DNA from: Traorella massiliensis
Lineage (GTDB): Bacteria; Bacillota_I; Bacilli_A; Erysipelotrichales; Erysipelotrichaceae
NCBI RefSeq assembly: GCF_900104665.1
Contig: NZ_LT629969.1
Span: 186,001-250,000 of the forward strand
Direction: 5' to 3'
Length of the DNA stretch: 64,000 nucleotides
Positions 1,194 to 47,087 of the stretch are shown in pieces; within the stretch, counting starts at the first letter, position 1; every line of letters begins with the position of its first letter. Made by a program: the position numbers and the translations under genes. The notes under the pieces were generated by a model, which had not been told where the DNA came from, searched no databases, and was given only the letters and a program-made list of their open reading frames with translations.

Positions 1194-1555
1194 AAATAAA
1201 TTTTTTTATTCTTTTTTAGGAAAAATAACAATTTTATGGATATAGAATAGTAGGTGTCCTACAAAGGAGGGAGTGAGGATCCATGACACCTATATTATTT
1301 GTATGGAGGGGTTGCAGTTGGGTTTTGAACTCATCATTCTTCTCCAGTTATTATAGGAAAATGTAGTAGCTGTGAAAGAGTGTTTGCGTTTGATCATACT
1401 GTACATCAGTCTGATTCAACGATAATCTGCGATCCTCCCTCCTAAATGAAACCCCAGTGCCACGAACACTGGGGTTTCCTATTTGTATGGAGTTCATCCG
1501 TTATTATTCTAACATATCTTATGCGTTTTGTCGATAACATTTCATCTTTATTCTT
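1194..1555 (-). repeat. Structured 360-bp element, copy 1 (candidate non-coding RNA)
   Basis: Near-identical inverted copy of 43620-43985. Conserved parts are a promoter-like TCGACA-N17-TAGAAT at the right end reading leftwards, a 12-bp GAAACCCCAGTG hairpin (1447-1479) whose loop differs between copies while the stem is kept, a purine-rich AGGAGGGAG-GATC segment able to pair with GATCCTCCCTCC about 170 nt away, and a TAGGTGTC/GACACCTA stem. A 13-nt direct repeat TATTTGTATGGAG occurs twice. Transcription from the conserved promoter would run towards the transporter-tgt operon, so it could be a leader or a free RNA. A 27-codon frame (1283-1366, plus strand) is also conserved. I do not recognise it as 6S, tmRNA, SRP, RNase P or a known riboswitch. 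Confidence 0.75.
1506..1534 (-). promoter_or_regulatory. Conserved promoter of the structured element, copy 1
   Basis: On the minus strand TCGACA (1534-1529) is followed after exactly 17 bp by TAGAAT (1511-1506). The same hexamers and spacing occur in copy 2, although several spacer bases differ between the copies. Confidence 0.6.
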
Positions 1556-12402: not shown

Positions 12403-13155
12403 ATGAATCAGAAAGAAAGAGAAATTTATTTAATTGATCGATTGCTGATGGAGCGTCATCAGCAAGCAGATAAAAATGCGTATAACTTTGATCTGTATCG
12501 AGCATTAGTGAATCTACGAGAACCTTTGCCAATGGATGATGAGTATTTGAAAATAGAAGATGAATATTTACAACAGATTTTAAAGGAAAAAGGAATCATA
12601 AAATTGGATGATGATGAACGGATCGTTATATGGCAAGGAGATATAACACGTTTAAAAGCGGATGCGATCGTCAATGCTGCTAATGAACAGATGCTAGGAT
12701 GCTTTGTTCCTGGACATCACTGCATTGATAATGCGATTCATACGTATGCAGGAATAAGATTGCGTTTAAAATGTAATGAGCTAATGAAAAAACAGGGATA
12801 TTTAGAACCAACAGGACAAGTAAAGGTTACACCTGCTTATAATCTTCCAAGTTGTTATGTATTTCATACAGTAGGACCGATCGTATCTTCTACGCTAACA
12901 AAAAGGCATGAGGAACTGTTGAAAATGTGTTATCAGAATTGTCTGAAAAAGGCAGATGAAATGAAGCTGGATTCCATTGCTTTTTGTTGTATATCAACAG
13001 GTGTTTTTCGTTTTCCACATGAAAAAGCTGCCATGATTGCTATTGATACGATCAAACGATATTTACCTGCTTCTCAGTTGAAACAAGTTATTTTTAATGT
13101 GTTTAAAGATGAAGATAAAGAAATATATGAAAAATTGAGTAAGGACGAAAAGTAG
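12403..13155 (+). CDS. Zinc-type macrodomain protein-ADP-ribose hydrolase
   Basis: A 250-residue protein with a helical N-terminal region and a macrodomain (from about residue 70, QGDITRLKADAIVNAANE). The segment GCFVPGHHCIDNAIHTYAG carries the Cys/His set that binds zinc in Zn-macrodomains, which in Staphylococcus and Streptococcus remove ADP-ribose placed by the partner SirTM on a lipoylated GcvH-like carrier. Here no SirTM, GcvH-L or lipoate ligase is adjacent. It sits 9 nt after the flavin/ferredoxin gene, so it may belong to the same stress operon. AAGGAG precedes the ATG. Confidence 0.85.
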   Translation: MNQKEREIYLIDRLLMERHQQADKNAYNFDLYRALVNLREPLPMDDEYLKIEDEYLQQILKEKGIIKLDDDERIVIWQGDITRLKADAIVNAANEQMLGCFVPGHHCIDNAIHTYAGIRLRLKCNELMKKQGYLEPTGQVKVTPAYNLPSCYVFHTVGPIVSSTLTKRHEELLKMCYQNCLKKADEMKLDSIAFCCISTGVFRFPHEKAAMIAIDTIKRYLPASQLKQVIFNVFKDEDKEIYEKLSKDEK

Positions 13156-13263
13156 TACTTAATCGAAAAGAAAAAGAAGAGATTTTAAATAAAAAAGTTA
13201 AATAAAAAAAATGAGCGCACTAAAAACAAGTGCACAAATGAAATAAAATAAATTTAGCGAAAA

Positions 13264-14126
13264 TCAGGTTTCATTTTTAATCCAAGCATCAAGATGAATA
13301 TTGATGGCGGCAAAGATTGAAAAGAAAGCTGCTTTGGAGTCTTCACGAATTCTCATCTGATGAAGATGATAGTCATTGAGAATTCTATTATTGATTCTCT
13401 CAGTACAAGTTCTATTTTTGTATAGTTCTTTCCATTTATCTGTTTTGTAAGGAACAGGGCCAAAAAGACGCATATCAAGCGAATCGTTAATGTAAACAGT
13501 TCTACCATATGGAGAAGGAGAACATGTATCTGCATGTGGACAAGAATCAATCAATCCCATTTTTAGAGGACAACGGAATTTTCTTCTTTGCCTTTGATAG
13601 TCGTAGCCACAGTGATACATTTCAACACCACAATCACAAATTGGTTTGCCGTTTTCACTAATAGAATCAAAGTGTTTATAAATATTTTTACCCAATTTAC
13701 GTTGATTGAAATCAATGATTGGGATAATATTATGGTGACGCAGAAATTGGTAAACGGCAGAAGAATCGCTTGCGGAATCGAAACACATGAATTTTGGAGA
13801 GAGTTCAGGGTTAATGTCAAGGAAACGAGCGGTAGAGGAAATGGAAGACAGAGCATCATGACGAGAAGCTTTCTCTAAATCGATAAAGACGGGAAGGTCA
13901 GTATGGATTAGAGGGTTATGATAAGAAATGTTATAGAGAGTATAACCGAAGTAATACATTCCAAGATCACTGTCCCAACCAAAATCTGCGTTTTTAGCGC
14001 TATAACGATGAGTGTTTAAAATATTGTCATCTTTAATGATTTGATGACCAAAAGGAGAAGCATGAATATGAAAAGCAGAACCATCACCAGAAAAGACAAG
14101 ATTGTAGGAATATGGTAATATTTTAA
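13264..14126 (-). pseudogene. 5'-truncated DDE transposase (IS1182-like)
   Basis: C-terminal part of a DDE transposase. The open frame has its first ATG at 13959 but continues upstream without a start through FSGDGSAFHIHASPFG to about 14126, where proC begins. Diagnostic pieces are a Cys/His-rich insertion (CDCGVEMYHCGYDYQRQRRKFRCP) and the C-terminal TERINNRILNDY motif with the catalytic Glu. The N-terminal DNA-binding half and the outer inverted repeat are missing, so this is a remnant. The junction lies immediately before the proC ribosome-binding site. Confidence 0.75.
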
Positions 14127-15001: not shown

Positions 15002-16456
15002 ATGATGGAAAAGTTAAGATTATATTTAACACGTAAAAATGTTTATTTAGGAAATGTAGTGATTGGAATCGTTGCTATTGTTTTGGGAATCCTGTATCTT
15101 TCTGCTGGTGGAAATGTCTCAAGCCTTGATGATTTGGGAAATGCTTTGTCGCTTCTTAAATTTATGTGTGTACTCTTTTACATTGATTTGTTTTTTTCGT
15201 TGCTTTTGAGCATTTCTCTCGCTTTTCGTTTGTTTTATATCAAGGATAATGAAATCACAGTTAAGATTTTAGGTGGTTTAAGTGTATTTAGTACACTGAT
15301 GGGACTTTTAAGCTTTTCAGGTGTACATGCACTTTATCAGTTGTTGAATGGTAATTTTATGGCACTTTTTGGCTTGAGTGGTATAGGCAGCTTAGGTACG
15401 ATGCTATTTCTATTTATAGCTTGTGAAATTGCTCAAGGCGGTTTTGCTGGTTATCTTTTGTTTGTCAAGAAAACAGAGGAATTGGATGTGTCTGCAGTAA
15501 AAGAGGATGCTGAACAGCTTGGAGAATTTGCAAAGGAAAAAGCTTCTCTAGCTATGGATGCTGCTAGTAAAGGTGCGAATAAACTTTCTGAGAAGTGGAA
15601 AGCTTACTATGCGACTGAGAAAGGAAAAAAGACAGTACGCTATGGTGGTATTGGTATTGCTGGTGTGATCATAGTGATTGCTGCAGTAAGTATTTATTTC
15701 AGTTTGAAGAAAACTCCTATTGATCTTACTTCAACGTGTGAATTGACATATAGCGGGGTATCGGGAGAAGGTTATGCTGATGTCAATTGTAATGTAGATT
15801 ATGATAGAAATAATACAAATTTTATGACTTTTGTAAATAATGTATACTATGAAATTGAAAATAATGGTTCATTGTCAAATGGAGATACGATAGTATTAAA
15901 GGCAATATATAGTGAAGAAACAGCAAAAGGAAGTAAAATTGAAGTGTTAAATCCACAAAAAGAATTTACAGTTGAAGGATTAGAAGTAGTGTATCGTACA
16001 TTTGAAGAAATCCCTGAAGATGTGTCTTCACAATTTGCACAAGCTACAGAAACAGCATTAAAAGAAGATATTGAAGAAACTCAAAGCTTTTTTGGACCTG
16101 ATACAGTCGTAATGAACAGTTGTGATTTGATTGGGGTTTATTATACTTATAACAGTTATTATCATGAAGGTACGGCTTATTATGTATATCGAACGAATGT
16201 TACTGAAGAGTACACGTCACAAACAGAAACAAATACAGAGTATTATAGTGTCCGTATTAATCCTATCAGCAGCAGTGAAGATGTGGATTTAGAATCAGAC
16301 TCGTTAATAATATCACAGATAAATTTATATAGTGATGAAAAAACAGATGAAGAAGCAATTGATTATTTTAAGTCATATCAAAGTGATTTAGAGGTCGTTC
16401 GTGAATCTCTATCTGATGAAACTTATGTTGATGAGACAGTACAAAAAGAAAATTAA
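15002..16456 (+). CDS. Multispanning membrane protein with extracellular domain, unknown
   Basis: About 485 residues. Four hydrophobic segments lie in the first 160 residues, then a soluble Ala/Glu/Lys-rich helical linker (about 165-205), a further membrane helix (GGIGIAGVIIVIAAVSIYFS) and about 240 residues rich in Glu, Thr, Tyr and Ser, probably outside the cell. I recognise no domain. GAGGGGG precedes the ATG at 15002. It follows proC by 49 nt and ends at a good terminator. Confidence 0.6.
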   Translation: MMEKLRLYLTRKNVYLGNVVIGIVAIVLGILYLSAGGNVSSLDDLGNALSLLKFMCVLFYIDLFFSLLLSISLAFRLFYIKDNEITVKILGGLSVFSTLMGLLSFSGVHALYQLLNGNFMALFGLSGIGSLGTMLFLFIACEIAQGGFAGYLLFVKKTEELDVSAVKEDAEQLGEFAKEKASLAMDAASKGANKLSEKWKAYYATEKGKKTVRYGGIGIAGVIIVIAAVSIYFSLKKTPIDLTSTCELTYSGVSGEGYADVNCNVDYDRNNTNFMTFVNNVYYEIENNGSLSNGDTIVLKAIYSEETAKGSKIEVLNPQKEFTVEGLEVVYRTFEEIPEDVSSQFAQATETALKEDIEETQSFFGPDTVVMNSCDLIGVYYTYNSYYHEGTAYYVYRTNVTEEYTSQTETNTEYYSVRINPISSSEDVDLESDSLIISQINLYSDEKTDEEAIDYFKSYQSDLEVVRESLSDETYVDETVQKEN

Positions 16457-16512
16457 AGGATGGGATACATCTAATGCAATAAATAAGGATTTACAGAAAT
16501 GTCGAATTTATG

Positions 16513-16545
16513 AATCTCTCATACAAAAAGATGAGGGATTTTTTT
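16513..16545 (+). terminator. Terminator after the membrane protein
   Basis: AATCTCTCAT / ATGAGGGATT 10-bp stem with one G-U pair, 8-nt loop and seven T. Confidence 0.8.
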
Positions 16546-16547
16546 GA

Positions 16548-17453
16548 TGTGTAGGGCTGATGTATTCACGCAGCACAAAAAAATTCAATTGAACCTTGTT
16601 TTTTTATTTGGTTTTACAAGTTAGATTAATATATCTTACAATATGATATCTTTGATTTATTGGTCCTTTTTCTCTTGAATGATCGTTTTTTTATTTTTGT
16701 TATATTCGTTGGTATATTCTCATCATTCTATCTGTATAGTCTTTTCTTGGCTCATCATCTTCACTCAGTATGGTTTGGATTAATCAGATGGTCTGTATCA
16801 GTCTGTAATATTTTTAATGAAATGATTTTGAATATCCATGTATCCTTATAGATATCTCCTGTAGTATCATAACAGGATGATATTCGTTAAACTTTTTCAT
16901 TTTCATTCAATTTTTCAAATGATTGTAGAGGGTGTATTGATATCCCAGCATAGTTTTGCCTGCAAATTATCTCTGACTATCGAATATGGATCTAGTTAAT
17001 ACATCAAGTTTTGATGAATTCAAACAGTCGAGCGAATTAGAAAGCAGGTCCTGAACCTGCTGATTTCCTTTTGTTGTTTTTGAAAAAAATTCTGACATTC
17101 TTCAGTAGAATAATTTTAGAAAAAGACAGTCCTTGTAAGTTTTGAACTGCTCTTTATTCTGATCGTCATAAAAATTCATTAGTTGATGCAATTGAGAATT
17201 GCCTCTTCTCGATAATAGATTATCACTTTTGATAAGATCAATGCGATATTTTTATGGACTTGGTAAGATAATCAAATAAGCTATAAGCTGTATCAAACGA
17301 TTACATATTTCTTTGTGGTTTCAATTTCTTGATTTTTTTAAAGTAAATGTTTCAGCTTGACAGATTTTGCCTATAAATCAAGTAGTTATTTGATGAATAT
17401 TGGTTTTTTTATATTGTTTATAATCTTTTTCCTTGAATAAAAAATTTATAAAA
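16548..17453. other. Gene-free, AT-rich stretch
   Basis: About 0.9 kb with no convincing gene on either strand. Short hydrophobic frames exist (for example 16660-16851 from a TTG) but lack a ribosome-binding site or homology I can name. There are hairpins such as AGCAGGT-CCTGA-ACCTGCT (17042-17060). It may be a decayed locus between an intact gene and the damaged flavodoxin gene. Confidence 0.4.
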
Positions 17454-18039: not shown

Positions 18040-18431
18040 TATATCTAACCTCTCTGAAAATATATAGGATTTCTGGCATCTATTATGACCAATTCTTAAA
18101 TTCCACTCGGGAACTAATATATTATAAAATGAAATACATTGATAATCAATACCAATAATATATGCCATTTGTTCGCTTTATAGAAGATTTTTTCTATGAT
18201 CTTCATTTGTACATACTCATATGTTAATTATTTTCTGTATACATTCTAAGGTACTTTATCAGTAAAATAAACGTTCAGTCTGCTGCTTGTCAGCCAGATT
18301 ATATAGGTGGTTTTATTGAGAGAACATAATTTACTGATATTTAAATTCTTATTTTGGTTGCATTTGGGATTTATCCTTTTATTTTTAACCTACATATTTT
18401 ATAATTGTCACGATTTAATTTAATTATAAAG

Positions 18432-41813: not shown

Positions 41814-41832
41814 TCATTTAGGAGGTGATTAA

Positions 41833-43149
41833 ATGGAACAAACAAGTTTATTTGAAAAGGGACAAAGTGCTCCTTTAGCCTCAAGAATGCGTCCAAGAAA
41901 TTTAAAGGAATTTGTAGGACAAACACATTTATTAGGCGAAGGGAAAATGTTAAGAAGGCTCATTGAAAGTGATCAGATTTCTTCGATGATCTTTTGGGGA
42001 CCTCCCGGTGTTGGAAAGACGACCTTGGCTCGTATCATTGCCAATCAGACAAAAAGTGCTTTTATTGACTTTTCAGCGGTAACAAGCGGTATCAAAGAGA
42101 TTCGTGCAGTCATGCAAAGAGCAGAGGAAAATCGTCGTTTTGGAGAGCGGACGATCTTATTTGTTGATGAAATTCATCGCTTCAATAAGGCCCAGCAGGA
42201 TGCTTTTCTACCTTTCGTGGAAAAAGGCAGCATTATCCTTATAGGTGCTACTACAGAAAATCCCTCTTTTGAAATCAACGCTGCTTTATTGTCAAGATGT
42301 AAGGTTTTTGTCTTACAGGCTTTAAGCATTGATGAAGTTGTATCACTTCTAAAAAGAGCTATTCATGATGAAAGAGGCTTTGGATATCAAAAAATAGATA
42401 TATCTGAAGATATGTTACGAATGATTGCGACATTTGCGAATGGAGATGCTCGTAGTGCTTTATCAACTTTGGAAATGGTGATATTAAATGGTCATATGGA
42501 TGAGAATGGTATTCATATTTCCATGGAAATATTGGAACAGTGTATTTCTAGAAAATCGCTGCTTTATGACAAGACTGGTGAAGAACATTATAATCTTATT
42601 TCAGCTTTACATAAGTCTATGCGTAACTCTGATCCGGATGCAGCCATCTATTGGCTGGCAAGGATGTTAGAAGCTGGAGAGGATCCTTTGTATGTTGCTC
42701 GTAGAGTCATTCGTTTTGCCAGTGAAGATATAGGACTGGCAGATCCTAGAGCCTTAGAGGTAGCGGTGGCAGCTTATCAGGCGGCTCATTTGATCGGGAT
42801 GCCTGAATGTACGGTAAATCTTAGTGAAGCAGTCATTTATATGGCTTTAGCTCCTAAATCAAATGCTTTGTATACTGCCTATGAAAACGCTAAAAAAGAT
42901 GCCTTGAATCATTTGGCTGAACCGGTACCTTTAGTCATTCGCAATGCTCCTACCAGACTTATGAAAGAACTTAATTATGGTAAGGACTATCAGTACGCTC
43001 ATAATACCAAAGAAAAACTCACTAATATGCAATGCCTTCCTGATTCATTAAAGGAAAGAGAATATTACCATCCATCGAATCAGGGATTGGAACAGAAATA
43101 TCAGGTAAGACTTGATGCAATTAAAAAATGGAAAAAGGAACATCAGTGA
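41833..43149 (+). CDS. rarA: Replication-associated recombination protein A (AAA+ ATPase)
   Basis: 438 residues of the RarA/MgsA/WRNIP1 family. Walker A is GPPGVGKTTLA, Walker B is LFVDEIHRFNKAQQD, sensor 1 is GATTENPSFE, and the C-terminal tetramerisation part has LARMLEAGEDPLYVARRVIRFASEDIGLADP. It acts at stalled replication forks. The N-terminus MEQTSLFEKGQSAPLASRMRP is typical. GGAGGTGATT precedes the ATG. Confidence 0.95.
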   Translation: MEQTSLFEKGQSAPLASRMRPRNLKEFVGQTHLLGEGKMLRRLIESDQISSMIFWGPPGVGKTTLARIIANQTKSAFIDFSAVTSGIKEIRAVMQRAEENRRFGERTILFVDEIHRFNKAQQDAFLPFVEKGSIILIGATTENPSFEINAALLSRCKVFVLQALSIDEVVSLLKRAIHDERGFGYQKIDISEDMLRMIATFANGDARSALSTLEMVILNGHMDENGIHISMEILEQCISRKSLLYDKTGEEHYNLISALHKSMRNSDPDAAIYWLARMLEAGEDPLYVARRVIRFASEDIGLADPRALEVAVAAYQAAHLIGMPECTVNLSEAVIYMALAPKSNALYTAYENAKKDALNHLAEPVPLVIRNAPTRLMKELNYGKDYQYAHNTKEKLTNMQCLPDSLKEREYYHPSNQGLEQKYQVRLDAIKKWKKEHQ

Positions 43150-43232
43150 TATGTTACGACTGTTAAAAGAAAATGAATTTGATGAAAGAATATTTAAGTA
43201 ATTTTGATGAATAAACAGTTAGAAATGAAATG

Positions 43233-43619: not shown

Positions 43620-43985
43620 TTCAGAAAAATGAAATGATATCGACAAATTGGATAAGATATGTTAGAATAATAACGGATGAACTCCATACAAATAGGAAAC
43701 CCCAGTGTTGCGCCACTGGGGTTTCATTTAGGAGGGAGGATCGCAGATTATCGTTGAATCAGACTGATGTACAGTATGATCAAACGCAAACATTCTTTCA
43801 CAGCTACTACATTTTCATATAATAACTGGAGAAGAATGATGAGTTCAAAACCCAACTGCACCCCCTCCATACAAATAATATAGGTGTCATGGATCCTCAC
43901 TCCCTCCTTTGTAGGACACCTACTATTCTATATCCATGAAAATGTCATTTTTCCTAAAAAAGAATGAAAAAAGTTTATTTTCTTA
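43620..43985 (+). repeat. Structured 360-bp element, copy 2 (candidate non-coding RNA)
   Basis: Inverted copy of 1194-1555 with only scattered differences. The hairpin stem GAAACCCCAGTG is unchanged while its loop differs (TTGCGC here). The 27-codon frame on its minus strand is kept, with one amino-acid change (Arg to Met). The promoter TCGACA-N17-TAGAAT reads rightwards into it and on towards the lipoprotein at 44224. Similarity stops sharply near 43620 and 43985, so this is a discrete unit rather than a gene duplication. Confidence 0.75.
43640..43668 (+). promoter_or_regulatory. Conserved promoter of the structured element, copy 2
   Basis: TCGACA (43640-43645), 17 bp, TAGAAT (43663-43668). 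Confidence 0.6.
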
Positions 43986-44223
43986 TTATTTACTTCTCAC
44001 TAAACAGTAACCAAAAAGAATAAAAGAATAAAAATGATTATCCTTCTGTTGAATAGTACAGGAGGATGTTTTTTTTGGTATAATAAAAATGGGTTTAACG
44101 AATATAGGGTTATATTTATGTTTATCTGACTGTAAGAAAATTTATCATTTTGACACTTACGATATTGGCTTTGGTAGGAGTAGTTGCAGAACAACGAATA
44201 CATTTGATAATTAGGAGGAAATT

Positions 44224-44567
44224 TATGAAAAAAAATCATGTCAGTGTTTATCGTTATGAGTTGTTTATTGGGATTAGGCGGATGTAAAAAGGATATGAAT
44301 GATATTATTGACGATGAACCATGTGTAAGGGGAGTTGTTTCTGAAACAAGTGATGCATATATAGTTATCGAGGTAAATAAAGATGATGATCTATATAAAG
44401 ATTATTCACGTATTCTTGTTTCCCTTGAAGTAGAAAATGAGGATAGCATAACAGATTTTACTATTGGGGATGAAGTAGCTGTTTATTATAATGGAACTAT
44501 TGAACAAAGCTTACCGCCTCAGATAAACCATGTTTATGCAATTCTTGAACTATATGAAGATGAATAA
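44224..44567 (+). pseudogene. Small lipoprotein with A-tract frame break at the start
   Basis: AGGAGG lies before ATG at 44224, but the A8 tract after it leads to a stop after 20 codons. With seven A the product would be a good lipoprotein: MKKIMSVFIVMSCLLGLGGC signal peptide and lipobox, then about 95 residues with an OB-like beta domain (VRGVVSETSDAYIVIEV). An in-frame ATG at 44238 could still start MSVFIVMSC, with a shortened signal peptide and no ribosome-binding site of its own. Phase variation, decay or sequencing error are all possible. Confidence 0.65.
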
Positions 44568-44713
44568 TTATTATTTATGAAAGTATGAATGAGATGATAT
44601 AAGGATGGGATAGATTTATCTAGAAATTTTTTAAATTCAAGTAAAAGGTTTAAGCCAAAATATTTTATAGATTGATTTGATAATTGTGAGTTTTGAAAGG
44701 AATCAGGGAAATT

Positions 44714-45577
44714 ATGGATATTACAGTAGAAATGGTAAAAAAATTAGTGAGAGAACAGTTTCCTCAATGGCAGCAGCTTGATATTTTTCCCGTTGCGAAA
44801 AGCGGGTTTGATAATCGTACATTTCATTTAGGAGATACAATGACAGTTCGTTTACCTAGTGGATTTGATTATGTGGCACAAGTTGAGAAAGAAAACAGGT
44901 GGATGCCTTATTTACAGGAGCATCTTGATTATGCTATTTCAAAACCAATCGCTACTGGGAAACCAACGAGCTATTATCCTTTTTCCTGGTCAATCAATTT
45001 ATGGATTGAAGGAAATACGTTACTTGAATGTTTTGATGTTGATCAGAAGCAATTTGCGAAAGATTTAGCGGAGGCATTACATAAATTACAGATGGTGGAT
45101 TGTCAGAATGGACCGGAAGCAGGAAAGCATAATTTCTATCGAGGCGGTGATTTGAAAATATATCATCAAGAGACACTCAATGCTTTAAAAAATCTGGAAA
45201 ATCGTTTGCCAGTAAAACAGTTATCTCATATATTGGAAACGAGTATTTCAAAGATATATAAAGGTAAAAAAGTTTGGGTACATGGTGATATAGCGCCAGG
45301 AAATATCTTGCTTCGAAATAATAAGTTTTATGGGCTTATTGATTTTGGAATACTTGGCATTGGAGATCCTGCTTGTGATTATGCAATGGCCTGGACTTAT
45401 TTTAATGAAGAAGCCAGGAGATTTTTTTTAGAAGGTTTACCTGAGGACATGGTAAATCGTGCAAGAGGCTGGGCATTATGGAAAGCTTTGATTACTTATG
45501 ACGATAGTGATGAAAATTTTAAACAAAGTGCACGATATACTGTTGATGCTATTTTAAGAGAAGGATTAAACGATTGA
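44714..45577 (+). CDS. Aminoglycoside phosphotransferase-family kinase
   Basis: About 287 residues of the APH/choline-kinase fold. The catalytic loop is VWVHGDIAPGNILL (Asp, Asn) and the metal Asp is in YGLIDFGILGIGDPACDYAMAW. It is related to Mph/APH proteins that phosphorylate small molecules. Whether it confers resistance cannot be judged from sequence. The ATG at 44714 is preceded by AGGGA; an upstream TTG at 44693 is less likely. Confidence 0.8.
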   Translation: MDITVEMVKKLVREQFPQWQQLDIFPVAKSGFDNRTFHLGDTMTVRLPSGFDYVAQVEKENRWMPYLQEHLDYAISKPIATGKPTSYYPFSWSINLWIEGNTLLECFDVDQKQFAKDLAEALHKLQMVDCQNGPEAGKHNFYRGGDLKIYHQETLNALKNLENRLPVKQLSHILETSISKIYKGKKVWVHGDIAPGNILLRNNKFYGLIDFGILGIGDPACDYAMAWTYFNEEARRFFLEGLPEDMVNRARGWALWKALITYDDSDENFKQSARYTVDAILREGLND

Positions 45578-45639
45578 AAACCAATTTTGATATGAGTAAT
45601 TCATTGTGAGAATTAGATAAACAGAAAGAGGTGGATCAA

Positions 45640-46077
45640 GTGTTTCGTTTAGCTCCGATAAGATCATGGAGATATATCTCCATGACATTGGTTTTTGTAG
45701 CAGCCCTTTTTACTTTGATGGGTACTTTTGGAATTGAAGGTGATTTGGTCATACATTGGAATGAAAATGGAGTGATTAATGATTTTGCAGGAAAATGGAT
45801 CTTATGGGCAATGTTGCTGTTGGCATTTATATCAATGTTTACATATAGCTCTCTTCGAAAAAATCGCAATGGGAATGATCTGTTAAGTGTAGAAATGGCT
45901 TGTGCTTTTTCATCTGGGCTAGTATCTACATGGACGATCGCAGATGTGATACTTGTTATTTATAATTTATATCCATTAGCAGTTATCCCTGAAATTGGTA
46001 TGATTGCGATTGTGTGCTGTTATATTTTGTTTTTTATGGCTGCTTATATTCAAAAAAAGAGAAATAACAGATCTTGA
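45640..46077 (+). CDS. DUF1648-like small membrane protein
   Basis: About 145 residues with four hydrophobic helices. The extracytoplasmic motif LVIHWNENGVINDFAGKW matches the DUF1648 domain of SdpI-like proteins. GAGGTGG lies before the GTG at 45640, which I prefer over the GTG at 45631. Function unknown; SdpI-type proteins give immunity to a toxin. Confidence 0.65.
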   Translation: MFRLAPIRSWRYISMTLVFVAALFTLMGTFGIEGDLVIHWNENGVINDFAGKWILWAMLLLAFISMFTYSSLRKNRNGNDLLSVEMACAFSSGLVSTWTIADVILVIYNLYPLAVIPEIGMIAIVCCYILFFMAAYIQKKRNNRS

Positions 46078-46093
46078 CTGATGAAAAAAGTGT

Positions 46094-46122
46094 AAAAAAA
46101 AGTCCAGTAGCGATACTGGACA
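46094..46122 (-). terminator. Terminator after the SDR gene, also serving the opposite strand
   Basis: Perfect GTCCAGTA / TACTGGAC stem with a 4-nt loop and eight T on the minus strand. Confidence 0.85.
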
Positions 46123-46129
46123 ATATTAT

Positions 46130-46924
46130 TTATTGTGGCTGCTTACCGATATAAGCTAAGATACCTCCATCAACGTAAAGAATGTGTCCGTTGACAAAGT
46201 TGCTGGCATCAGAAGCAAGGAATACAGCTGGTCCCATAAGATCCTCTGTAGTACCCCATCGAGCTGCAGGTGTCTTAGAAATAATAAAGCTATTGAATGG
46301 ATGACCTTCTGTTCTTAATGGTGCAGTCTGAGGTGTTTCGATATATCCTGGACCGATACCATTGCACTGAATGTTGTATTCACCATATTCAGAAGCAATA
46401 TTTCGAGTTAGCATTTTTAATCCGCCTTTTGCAGCCGCATATGCAGATACCGTTTCACGTCCAAGTTCACTCATCATGGAACAGATGTTAATGATCTTGC
46501 CATGTCCTTTTTTGATCATTGAAGGAATGACTGCTTTTGATACGATGAATGGTCCATTTAGGTCAATATCGACTACTTTACGGAAATCATCGGCACTCAT
46601 TTCAATCATTGGGATACGCTTGATGATTCCGGCATTATTTACAAGAATGTCAATGACACCTACTTCTTCTTCAATTTTTTTGACAAGCTCTTGAACGGCA
46701 TTTTCATCGGTAACATCACATACATAGCCGTGTGCCTGAATACCAGCTTCTTCATAAGCTTTTAAACCTTTATCGACTAATTCCTGGTTGATATCGTTAA
46801 ATACGATCGTAGCGCCTGATTTCGCAAATCCGCTGGCAATCGCAAAACCGATTCCATAAGAAGCACCCGTAACTAAAGCAATCTTACCGTCTAAACGGAA
46901 GCTTTCTGGTGTGAATTCTTTCAT
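46130..46924 (-). CDS. SDR oxidoreductase, gluconate 5-dehydrogenase type
   Basis: 264 residues, classical short-chain dehydrogenase. Cofactor motif VTGASYGIGFAIA, NNAGI, catalytic Ser in ICSMMS and Tyr/Lys in SAYAAAKGG. The C-terminal GILAYIGKQPQ is typical of gluconate 5-dehydrogenases, which interconvert 5-keto-D-gluconate and gluconate with NAD(P)H. The gene is monocistronic, with no gluconate kinase nearby. Confidence 0.85.
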   Translation of the reverse strand: MKEFTPESFRLDGKIALVTGASYGIGFAIASGFAKSGATIVFNDINQELVDKGLKAYEEAGIQAHGYVCDVTDENAVQELVKKIEEEVGVIDILVNNAGIIKRIPMIEMSADDFRKVVDIDLNGPFIVSKAVIPSMIKKGHGKIINICSMMSELGRETVSAYAAAKGGLKMLTRNIASEYGEYNIQCNGIGPGYIETPQTAPLRTEGHPFNSFIISKTPAARWGTTEDLMGPAVFLASDASNFVNGHILYVDGGILAYIGKQPQ

Positions 46925-47087
46925 TTTTTGTACCTTCTTTCTTTATTCCCTTTAAGTATACTGATGTTTGATTTGACTTTCAACTCTTTTGTTGGGCAGA
47001 ATAATGAGGAAGTTTTTTATTTACAAAAGTCACACCATTTGCATCTTTTTCACATATCATATAATATAGACAAAAGGATGTGAGTTT

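What the first reader, a model, noticed from the sequence alone, without database searches (positions are those of the whole stretch)
1194..1555. Inverted pair of 360-bp structured elements: candidate new RNA family
The stretches 1194-1555 and 43620-43985 are near-identical in opposite orientation. They share a promoter, a 12-bp hairpin with a variable loop, long-range complementary segments and a short stem. They carry no gene I recognise and match no RNA family I know. Loop change with stem conservation suggests selection on RNA structure. Each copy points into a different downstream gene, so both a free RNA and a mobile leader element are possible.
Basis: partly seen in the sequence, partly recalled or inferred. 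Interest (0 to 1): 0.82.

Follow-up and report, generated by a model that had tools for sequence, protein, structure and literature searches.

The report
Competence-linked type I toxin–antitoxin RNA pairs
The two repeated stretches are not a new structured RNA: each looks like a tiny self-poisoning switch, a ~35-residue membrane-type peptide gene silenced by a short antisense RNA, and the peptide gene carries the promoter that the bacterium uses for its DNA-uptake (competence) genes.

Summary
The pair is real (~95% identical, opposite orientation) and belongs to a family: six near-complete copies in this Traorella-like genome, four in a congener, ten in a sister genus. On the opposite strand every element has a promoter, a direct repeat (DRa) containing the Shine-Dalgarno, a 26-35-aa hydrophobic/amphipathic peptide ORF under purifying selection, the '12-bp hairpin' (an intrinsic terminator with covarying stem), a second direct repeat (DRb), and a converging extended -10 promoter that would make a ~60-nt antisense RNA complementary to the Shine-Dalgarno region. 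DRa and DRb change together from element to element, as antisense recognition predicts. This is the layout of par/Fst type I toxin-antitoxin loci, but the peptide lacks the Fst PXXXG motif and matches no known family. Unexpectedly, the toxin promoter motif also precedes dprA, comGA, comEA and comFA here, and a cognate motif precedes dprA, comGA and rpsF-ssb in the sister genus. Best reading: a competence-controlled toxin held in check by a constitutive antisense RNA, like TisB/IstR-1 with competence in place of SOS. Copy A's toxin is broken by a TAG; copy B's is intact. Toxicity and expression are inferred, not shown.

The parts
1219..1253 (+). Copy A: competence-type promoter of the toxin mRNA (GGAAAAATAACAATTTTATGGATATAGAATAGTAG)
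   Evidence: Genome-wide motif: 31 sites in this genome at <=3 mismatches, 0 for the reversed control; same motif upstream of dprA, comGA, comEA, comFA
1253..1290 (+). Copy A: leader hairpin GGTGTC...GACACC enclosing GGAGGGAG
   Evidence: Alignment of copies; GGCA/TGCC in L005/L019
1270..1442 (+). Copy A: long-range 5'-3' helix, arms 1270-1281 and 1431-1442
   Evidence: Inverted repeat; leader/tail segments co-vary across elements, permutation p about 1e-4
1296..1308 (+). Copy A: direct repeat DRa TATTTGTATGGAG, overlapping the Shine-Dalgarno GGAGGGG (1305-1311)
1318..1425 (+). Copy A: toxin reading frame, broken by TAG at 1354-1356
   Evidence: intact orthologue at the same site in G003 (L011)
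1448..1478 (+). Copy A: intrinsic terminator, 12-bp stem, 7-nt loop
   Evidence: stem covariation across elements
1480..1492 (+). Copy A: direct repeat DRb (its complement lies near the 5' end of the antisense RNA)
1506..1534 (-). Copy A: antisense-RNA promoter TCGACA-17-TAGAAT with extended -10 TG
   Evidence: extended -10 in 19 of 20 elements
1441..1499 (-). Copy A: predicted antisense antitoxin RNA, about 60 nt
   Evidence: inferred from promoter and terminator
43920..43954 (-). Copy B: competence-type promoter of the toxin mRNA
43865..43877 (-). Copy B: direct repeat DRa at the Shine-Dalgarno
43748..43855 (-). Copy B: intact toxin ORF, LGFELIILLQLLYENVVAVKECLRLIILYISLIQR (TTG start)
43731..43903 (-). 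Copy B: long-range 5'-3' helix, arms 43892-43903 and 43731-43742
43696..43725 (-). Copy B: intrinsic terminator, 12-bp stem, 6-nt loop
43682..43694 (-). Copy B: direct repeat DRb
43640..43668 (+). Copy B: antisense-RNA promoter TCGACA-17-TAGAAT with extended -10 TG
43675..43733 (+). Copy B: predicted antisense antitoxin RNA, about 60 nt
   Evidence: inferred from promoter and terminator

Best explanation
Each copy is a type I toxin-antitoxin locus with par/Fst-like layout but an unrelated (or unrecognisably diverged) toxin. RNA I (about 230 nt) starts at a promoter of the kind that drives the late competence genes. It encodes a 26-35-aa hydrophobic, amphipathic peptide and ends at a terminator placed between the two converging genes. 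Its leader folds on itself and pairs with the 3' end, which probably delays translation. RNA II (about 60 nt) starts at an ordinary extended -10 sigma-A-type promoter beyond the terminator and runs back to it. RNA II pairs with RNA I at the terminator loop and, through the direct repeat, at the toxin's Shine-Dalgarno, so the toxin is not translated. When competence is switched on the toxin mRNA rises against a constant antitoxin, and the peptide acts on the membrane (growth arrest, depolarisation or lysis). Shown by sequence: ORF and its selection, direct-repeat co-variation, terminator and 5'-3' helix co-variation, the two promoters and the shared com motif. Inferred: transcription, RNA sizes, toxicity, competence induction.
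For: ORF conserved across two genera (KEC core; pN/pS 0.42 in frame against 0.70 and 1.36 in the other sense frames, second codon positions most conserved; full-length frame open in 19 of 20 elements). DRa matches the DRb of its own element far better than those of others (sum 142 against a permuted mean of 77.5, sd 7.7, p<=1e-5; in the sister genus alone the true pairing is the best of 40,320). Tandem neighbours 350 bp apart have different but internally matching repeats (L062/L064, L034/L040). Terminator stem: 3 pairs with compensatory changes, covariation score 0.294 against 0.109 shuffled. 5'-3' helix co-variation p about 1e-4. Extended -10 antisense promoter in 19 of 20. Competence motif upstream of toxin genes and of dprA, comGA, comEA, comFA in G000; dprA and comGA, found independently by Pfam, carry it in G003, and a cognate motif precedes dprA (G123, G639), comGA (G639) and rpsF-ssb in the sister genus. 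The par/Fst layout follows the review PMC7472228.
Against: No transcript, toxicity or competence data. The terminator scan flags a T-run only on the sense side, so termination of the antisense RNA at the hairpin is less certain. In Traorella the inferred start is often TTG, and an upstream ATG with a good Shine-Dalgarno opens a short out-of-frame leader ORF. Hydrophobicity is moderate, with charges within the helix (GRAVY 0.5-1.3), so a simple transmembrane helix is not certain. The dN/dS pairs are not independent and one antisense frame gives 0.52. The comGA upstream region of G123 did not match the motif as searched, and the congener G004 has neither the elements nor a clear motif at dprA or comGA.
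Confidence: 0.82

Rival explanations
1. A new non-coding structured RNA family or mobile cis-regulatory leader read from the reader's strand.
Against: The opposite strand folds better (z -6.3), carries an ORF under purifying selection with a Shine-Dalgarno and its terminator.
Confidence: 0.05
2. A small competence-regulated peptide (signal, fratricide or bacteriocin-like) whose antisense RNA is merely a brake; the peptide is not a self-toxin.
For: Shares the com-type promoter; amphipathic helix; other competence regulons include lytic or signalling peptides (general knowledge).
Against: No signal-peptide-like or double-glycine leader is evident in the peptide and the copies lie beside unrelated genes; the par-like mRNA lock and dedicated antisense are typical of self-toxic type I peptides.
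Confidence: 0.1
3. A MITE-like repeat with a fortuitous ORF.
For: Three copies ~95% identical at unrelated sites; remnants exist (L007, L022).
Against: No terminal inverted repeats found at the ends; copy A and B sites are shared with G003, so insertion is old; codon-level selection and compensatory changes.
Confidence: 0.03

Closest known systems
par/Fst type I toxin-antitoxin (pAD1 par; chromosomal Fst loci)
   Same: Convergent RNAs, terminator between them, DRa/DRb direct repeats at the toxin's translation start, SD sequestered in the mRNA, DR sequences poorly conserved between paralogues (PMC7472228)
   Different: Peptide has no PXXXG motif and no Fst/Ldr match; the toxin promoter is a competence-type motif; only seen in two Erysipelotrichaceae genera
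tisB/istR-1 of E. coli
   Same: Works alike: a short membrane peptide from a regulon-controlled promoter against an antisense RNA (TisB: SOS-induced; PMC8145889 abstract)
   Different: Different phylum, no sequence relation claimed; the regulon here appears to be competence; the antitoxin pairs through direct repeats at the Shine-Dalgarno
txpA/RatA and bsrG/SR4 of Bacillus (from general knowledge)
   Same: Convergent antisense antitoxin on the 3' side of a small hydrophobic toxin gene
   Different: There recognition is by plain overlap of the 3' ends; here an additional direct repeat targets the Shine-Dalgarno

Membership tests
par/Fst type I TA | Convergent toxin and antitoxin promoters | tested here: met
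   By sequence: com-type promoter and extended -10 antisense promoter in 19 of 20 elements; not shown by transcripts
par/Fst type I TA | Bidirectional intrinsic terminator between the genes | tested here: inconclusive
   Covarying 12-bp stem; T-run called on the sense side only
par/Fst type I TA | DRa/DRb direct repeats, one at the toxin start, one in the antitoxin gene | tested here: met
par/Fst type I TA | Fst peptide with PXXXG motif / Fst profile match | tested here: not met
   No such motif in alignment A3; no Pfam or NCBIfam match. Not filed as an Fst member
par/Fst type I TA | Shine-Dalgarno sequestered by mRNA structure | tested here: inconclusive
   Leader hairpin and 5'-3' helix conserved; whether the toxin SD itself is closed is not settled
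Type I TA (general) | Toxic small peptide neutralised by antisense RNA | not testable with these tools
   Needs expression assays
Competence regulon member | Promoter motif shared with late com genes | tested here: met
Competence regulon member | Induction in competent cells | not testable with these tools
   No expression data; the sigma factor or activator was not identified
Rfam RNA family | Match at gathering score | tested here: not met
MITE | Terminal inverted repeats and target duplication | tested here: not met

The most novel reading that the evidence does not exclude
A selfish, competence-triggered addiction module: toxin mRNA is made exactly when the cell takes up DNA that could delete the locus by recombination, so transformants that lose it are killed and the element resists 'chromosomal curing'. 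Several orthogonal copies per genome would guard several sites. A second, unrelated peptide family under the same promoter (L078, L119) would make competence-coupled peptides a wider phenomenon in these gut bacteria.
Probability: 0.15. Interest if true: 0.88.

Novelty: new variant of a known kind. Interest (0 to 1): 0.62.

Why it matters
It adds a toxin family without recognised relatives to par-like type I systems, in a group where my literature search found none described, and it ties a type I toxin to a competence promoter, a Gram-positive counterpart of the SOS-TisB link. The function of chromosomal par-like loci is an open question (PMC7472228); a promoter shared with dprA and comGA gives a specific condition under which to look. 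The natural set of paralogues with different, internally matched repeats is also a ready test of antisense orthogonality. The com-type motif itself appears to mark a competence regulon in Erysipelotrichaceae for which I found no description.

Tried and rejected
Rfam at gathering and relaxed thresholds: nothing. Exact DNA seed in public genomes: none. Phage, plasmid and viral collections: no relative of the peptide, and none of the terminator in the viral collection, so no sign there of a phage or plasmid home. Terminator pattern across 395 genomes of the class: only the two Traorella genomes. Weak peptide hits in G158, G278, G113 and G092 were inspected and rejected (no terminator, no repeats, frame inside other sequence). 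The out-of-frame leader ORF (MTPVFFVWRD...) was considered as the product and set aside, because changes between copies favour the toxin frame. MITE reading rejected. A SigH-type promoter (AGGAAT-N13-GAAT, from memory) was considered for the toxin promoter; the spacing does not fit. Sigma factor not identified.

Full report
What is there. A whole-genome search found six near-complete copies and several remnants in the 2.6-Mb genome, and more in one congener of 60 relatives (G003), whose contigs are named as uncultured Traorella sp. (Erysipelotrichaceae).

The strand. Aligning all copies in that orientation showed a reading frame, LGFELIILLQLLYENVVAVKECLRLIILYISLIQR in copy B. In copy A it is broken by TAG at 1354-1356, while the orthologue of copy A in G003 (L011, syntenic over 2.5 kb) is intact. 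A profile search of 295 genomes of the order recovered the Traorella copies plus four distant copies in another genus of the family (G123), and a second pass added six more in G639. These have MxFExIILLDI...KECxKL peptides, several with a strong AAGGAG-type Shine-Dalgarno before the ATG, which fixes the start of the ORF. Between copies the frame shows pN/pS 0.42 (other sense frames 0.70 and 1.36) and the fewest changes at second positions; copy B against L004 has 7 synonymous and 2 non-synonymous changes. The pairs are not independent. No Pfam, NCBIfam or PHROGs family gives a credible match.

The anatomy. The elements share one order: promoter, leader with a purine-rich segment, direct repeat DRa overlapping the Shine-Dalgarno, ORF, pyrimidine-rich segment complementary to the leader, 12-bp terminator hairpin, direct repeat DRb, converging promoter (L018 lacks the 5' part). 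Four quantitative tests support function. (1) DRa fits its own DRb and not those of other elements: 142 against 77.5 +/- 7.7 on permutation. The signal is strongest in the sister genus (true pairing best of 40,320); in Traorella several copies share one repeat, so the test there is weak (2 of 120 permutations reach the observed value). (2) Terminator stem: three positions with compensatory changes. (3) Leader/tail helix: own pairing better than swapped, p about 1e-4. (4) Among three 95%-identical copies (A, B, L003) 6 of 7 loop columns vary against 16 of 323 others, Fisher p 3e-7. A hypervariable loop in an invariant stem is what is expected where a loop starts sense-antisense pairing and paralogues must not cross-react; this last step is inference.

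The mechanism. Because the toxin mRNA ends at the terminator, it should not contain a full DRb; the antisense RNA starts beyond DRb, so it carries the complement of the direct repeat, which can then pair with DRa at the toxin's Shine-Dalgarno. The terminator loop provides the second pairing site. This is the par(pAD1) arrangement as summarised by Weaver (PMC7472228): convergent promoters, shared terminator, DRa/DRb, sequestered SD, poorly conserved DRs that presumably give paralogue specificity. The peptide, however, lacks the PXXXG motif required in Fst, so I describe the locus as working like par/Fst, not as a member of Fst.

The promoter. Fragments matched by the first search turned out to be promoter-only hits, one of them in front of dprA. 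The motif RGGAAWWWNNNNWTTTNNNGNATATANAANAGTAG (up to 3 mismatches) occurs 31 times in this genome and 24 times in G003, with none for the reversed pattern. Downstream genes include dprA (PF02481, 5e-66), comGA (T2SSE, 5e-69), comEA (SLBB + HHH_3), a comFA-like helicase, many Rpn/PD-(D/E)XK-like nuclease genes and the toxin loci. As an independent check I located dprA and comGA by Pfam: in G003 both carry the motif; in the sister genus dprA (G123, G639), comGA (G639) and rpsF-ssb carry related motifs (TAGGGAAAATT...CGTATATATAAGTAG at dprA and comGA), which the toxin promoters there resemble. So toxin genes and late competence genes share a promoter type in two genera. The sigma factor or activator is unknown, and competence itself has not been shown here.

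What is new. The layout is known; the toxin family and its regulon are not, as far as the searched literature goes (open-access full text only). The nearest functional analogue is TisB/IstR-1, where a membrane peptide is under SOS control with an antisense antitoxin. The selfish anti-curing reading draws on the idea that transformation removes mobile elements (PMC4774983, PMC12637031, abstracts only) and is untested.

Limits. Everything is sequence inference. Transcription start sites, RNA lengths, antisense termination, toxicity and induction all need experiments. How the 360-bp units spread is unexplained: no terminal repeats were found, yet three copies are ~95% identical at unrelated sites.

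Noticed in passing
L078 (G000:C7:140233 onward) and L119 (G000:C9:149258 downward): The same competence-type promoter precedes a second, unrelated family of ~30-aa amphipathic peptides (MVDLIKEIRLLIHSIRRLLEIIIKLSCNKKER; MKELRLLIHAVRRLLEVMIKLSVYKKTR) with a conserved leader hairpin; two copies in this genome.
   Followed up: partly
L092, L109, L114, L116, L010, L111, L112, L113, L117, L118: About ten Rpn/PD-(D/E)XK-like nuclease genes in this genome carry the competence-type promoter; of those scanned only L092 reached a Pfam match (PDDEXK_2).
   Followed up: partly
L018 start and L020 end (G003 contigs C71 and C81): In G003 the orthologue of copy B appears split by an insertion sequence: both contig ends carry the same inverted end sequence, and their flanks match window 41820-43152 and 44211-47061.
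   Followed up: partly
window 16450-16649 and 18343-18403: Similar to sequence at the L018/L020 contig ends, so a related insertion sequence or repeat may lie at about 16.4-18.4 kb.
   Followed up: no
window 13133-14111: A 979-bp stretch repeated at 99.7% identity next to the TA copy L004 elsewhere in the genome.
   Followed up: no
L007 (G000:C9:444442-444632) and L022 (G003:C64): Remnants: L007 keeps the promoter, terminator and last part of the ORF with the middle deleted; L022 keeps the end of the frame and the terminator.
   Followed up: partly
window 1283 (+) and the corresponding site in other Traorella copies: An ATG with a good Shine-Dalgarno opens a short leader ORF out of frame with, and overlapping, the toxin ORF, reminiscent of mok/hok; in L006 an extra base puts it in frame.
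   Followed up: partly
L121 (G123:C13:181): Sister-genus site with the competence-type motif upstream of unrecognised small ORFs.
   Followed up: no
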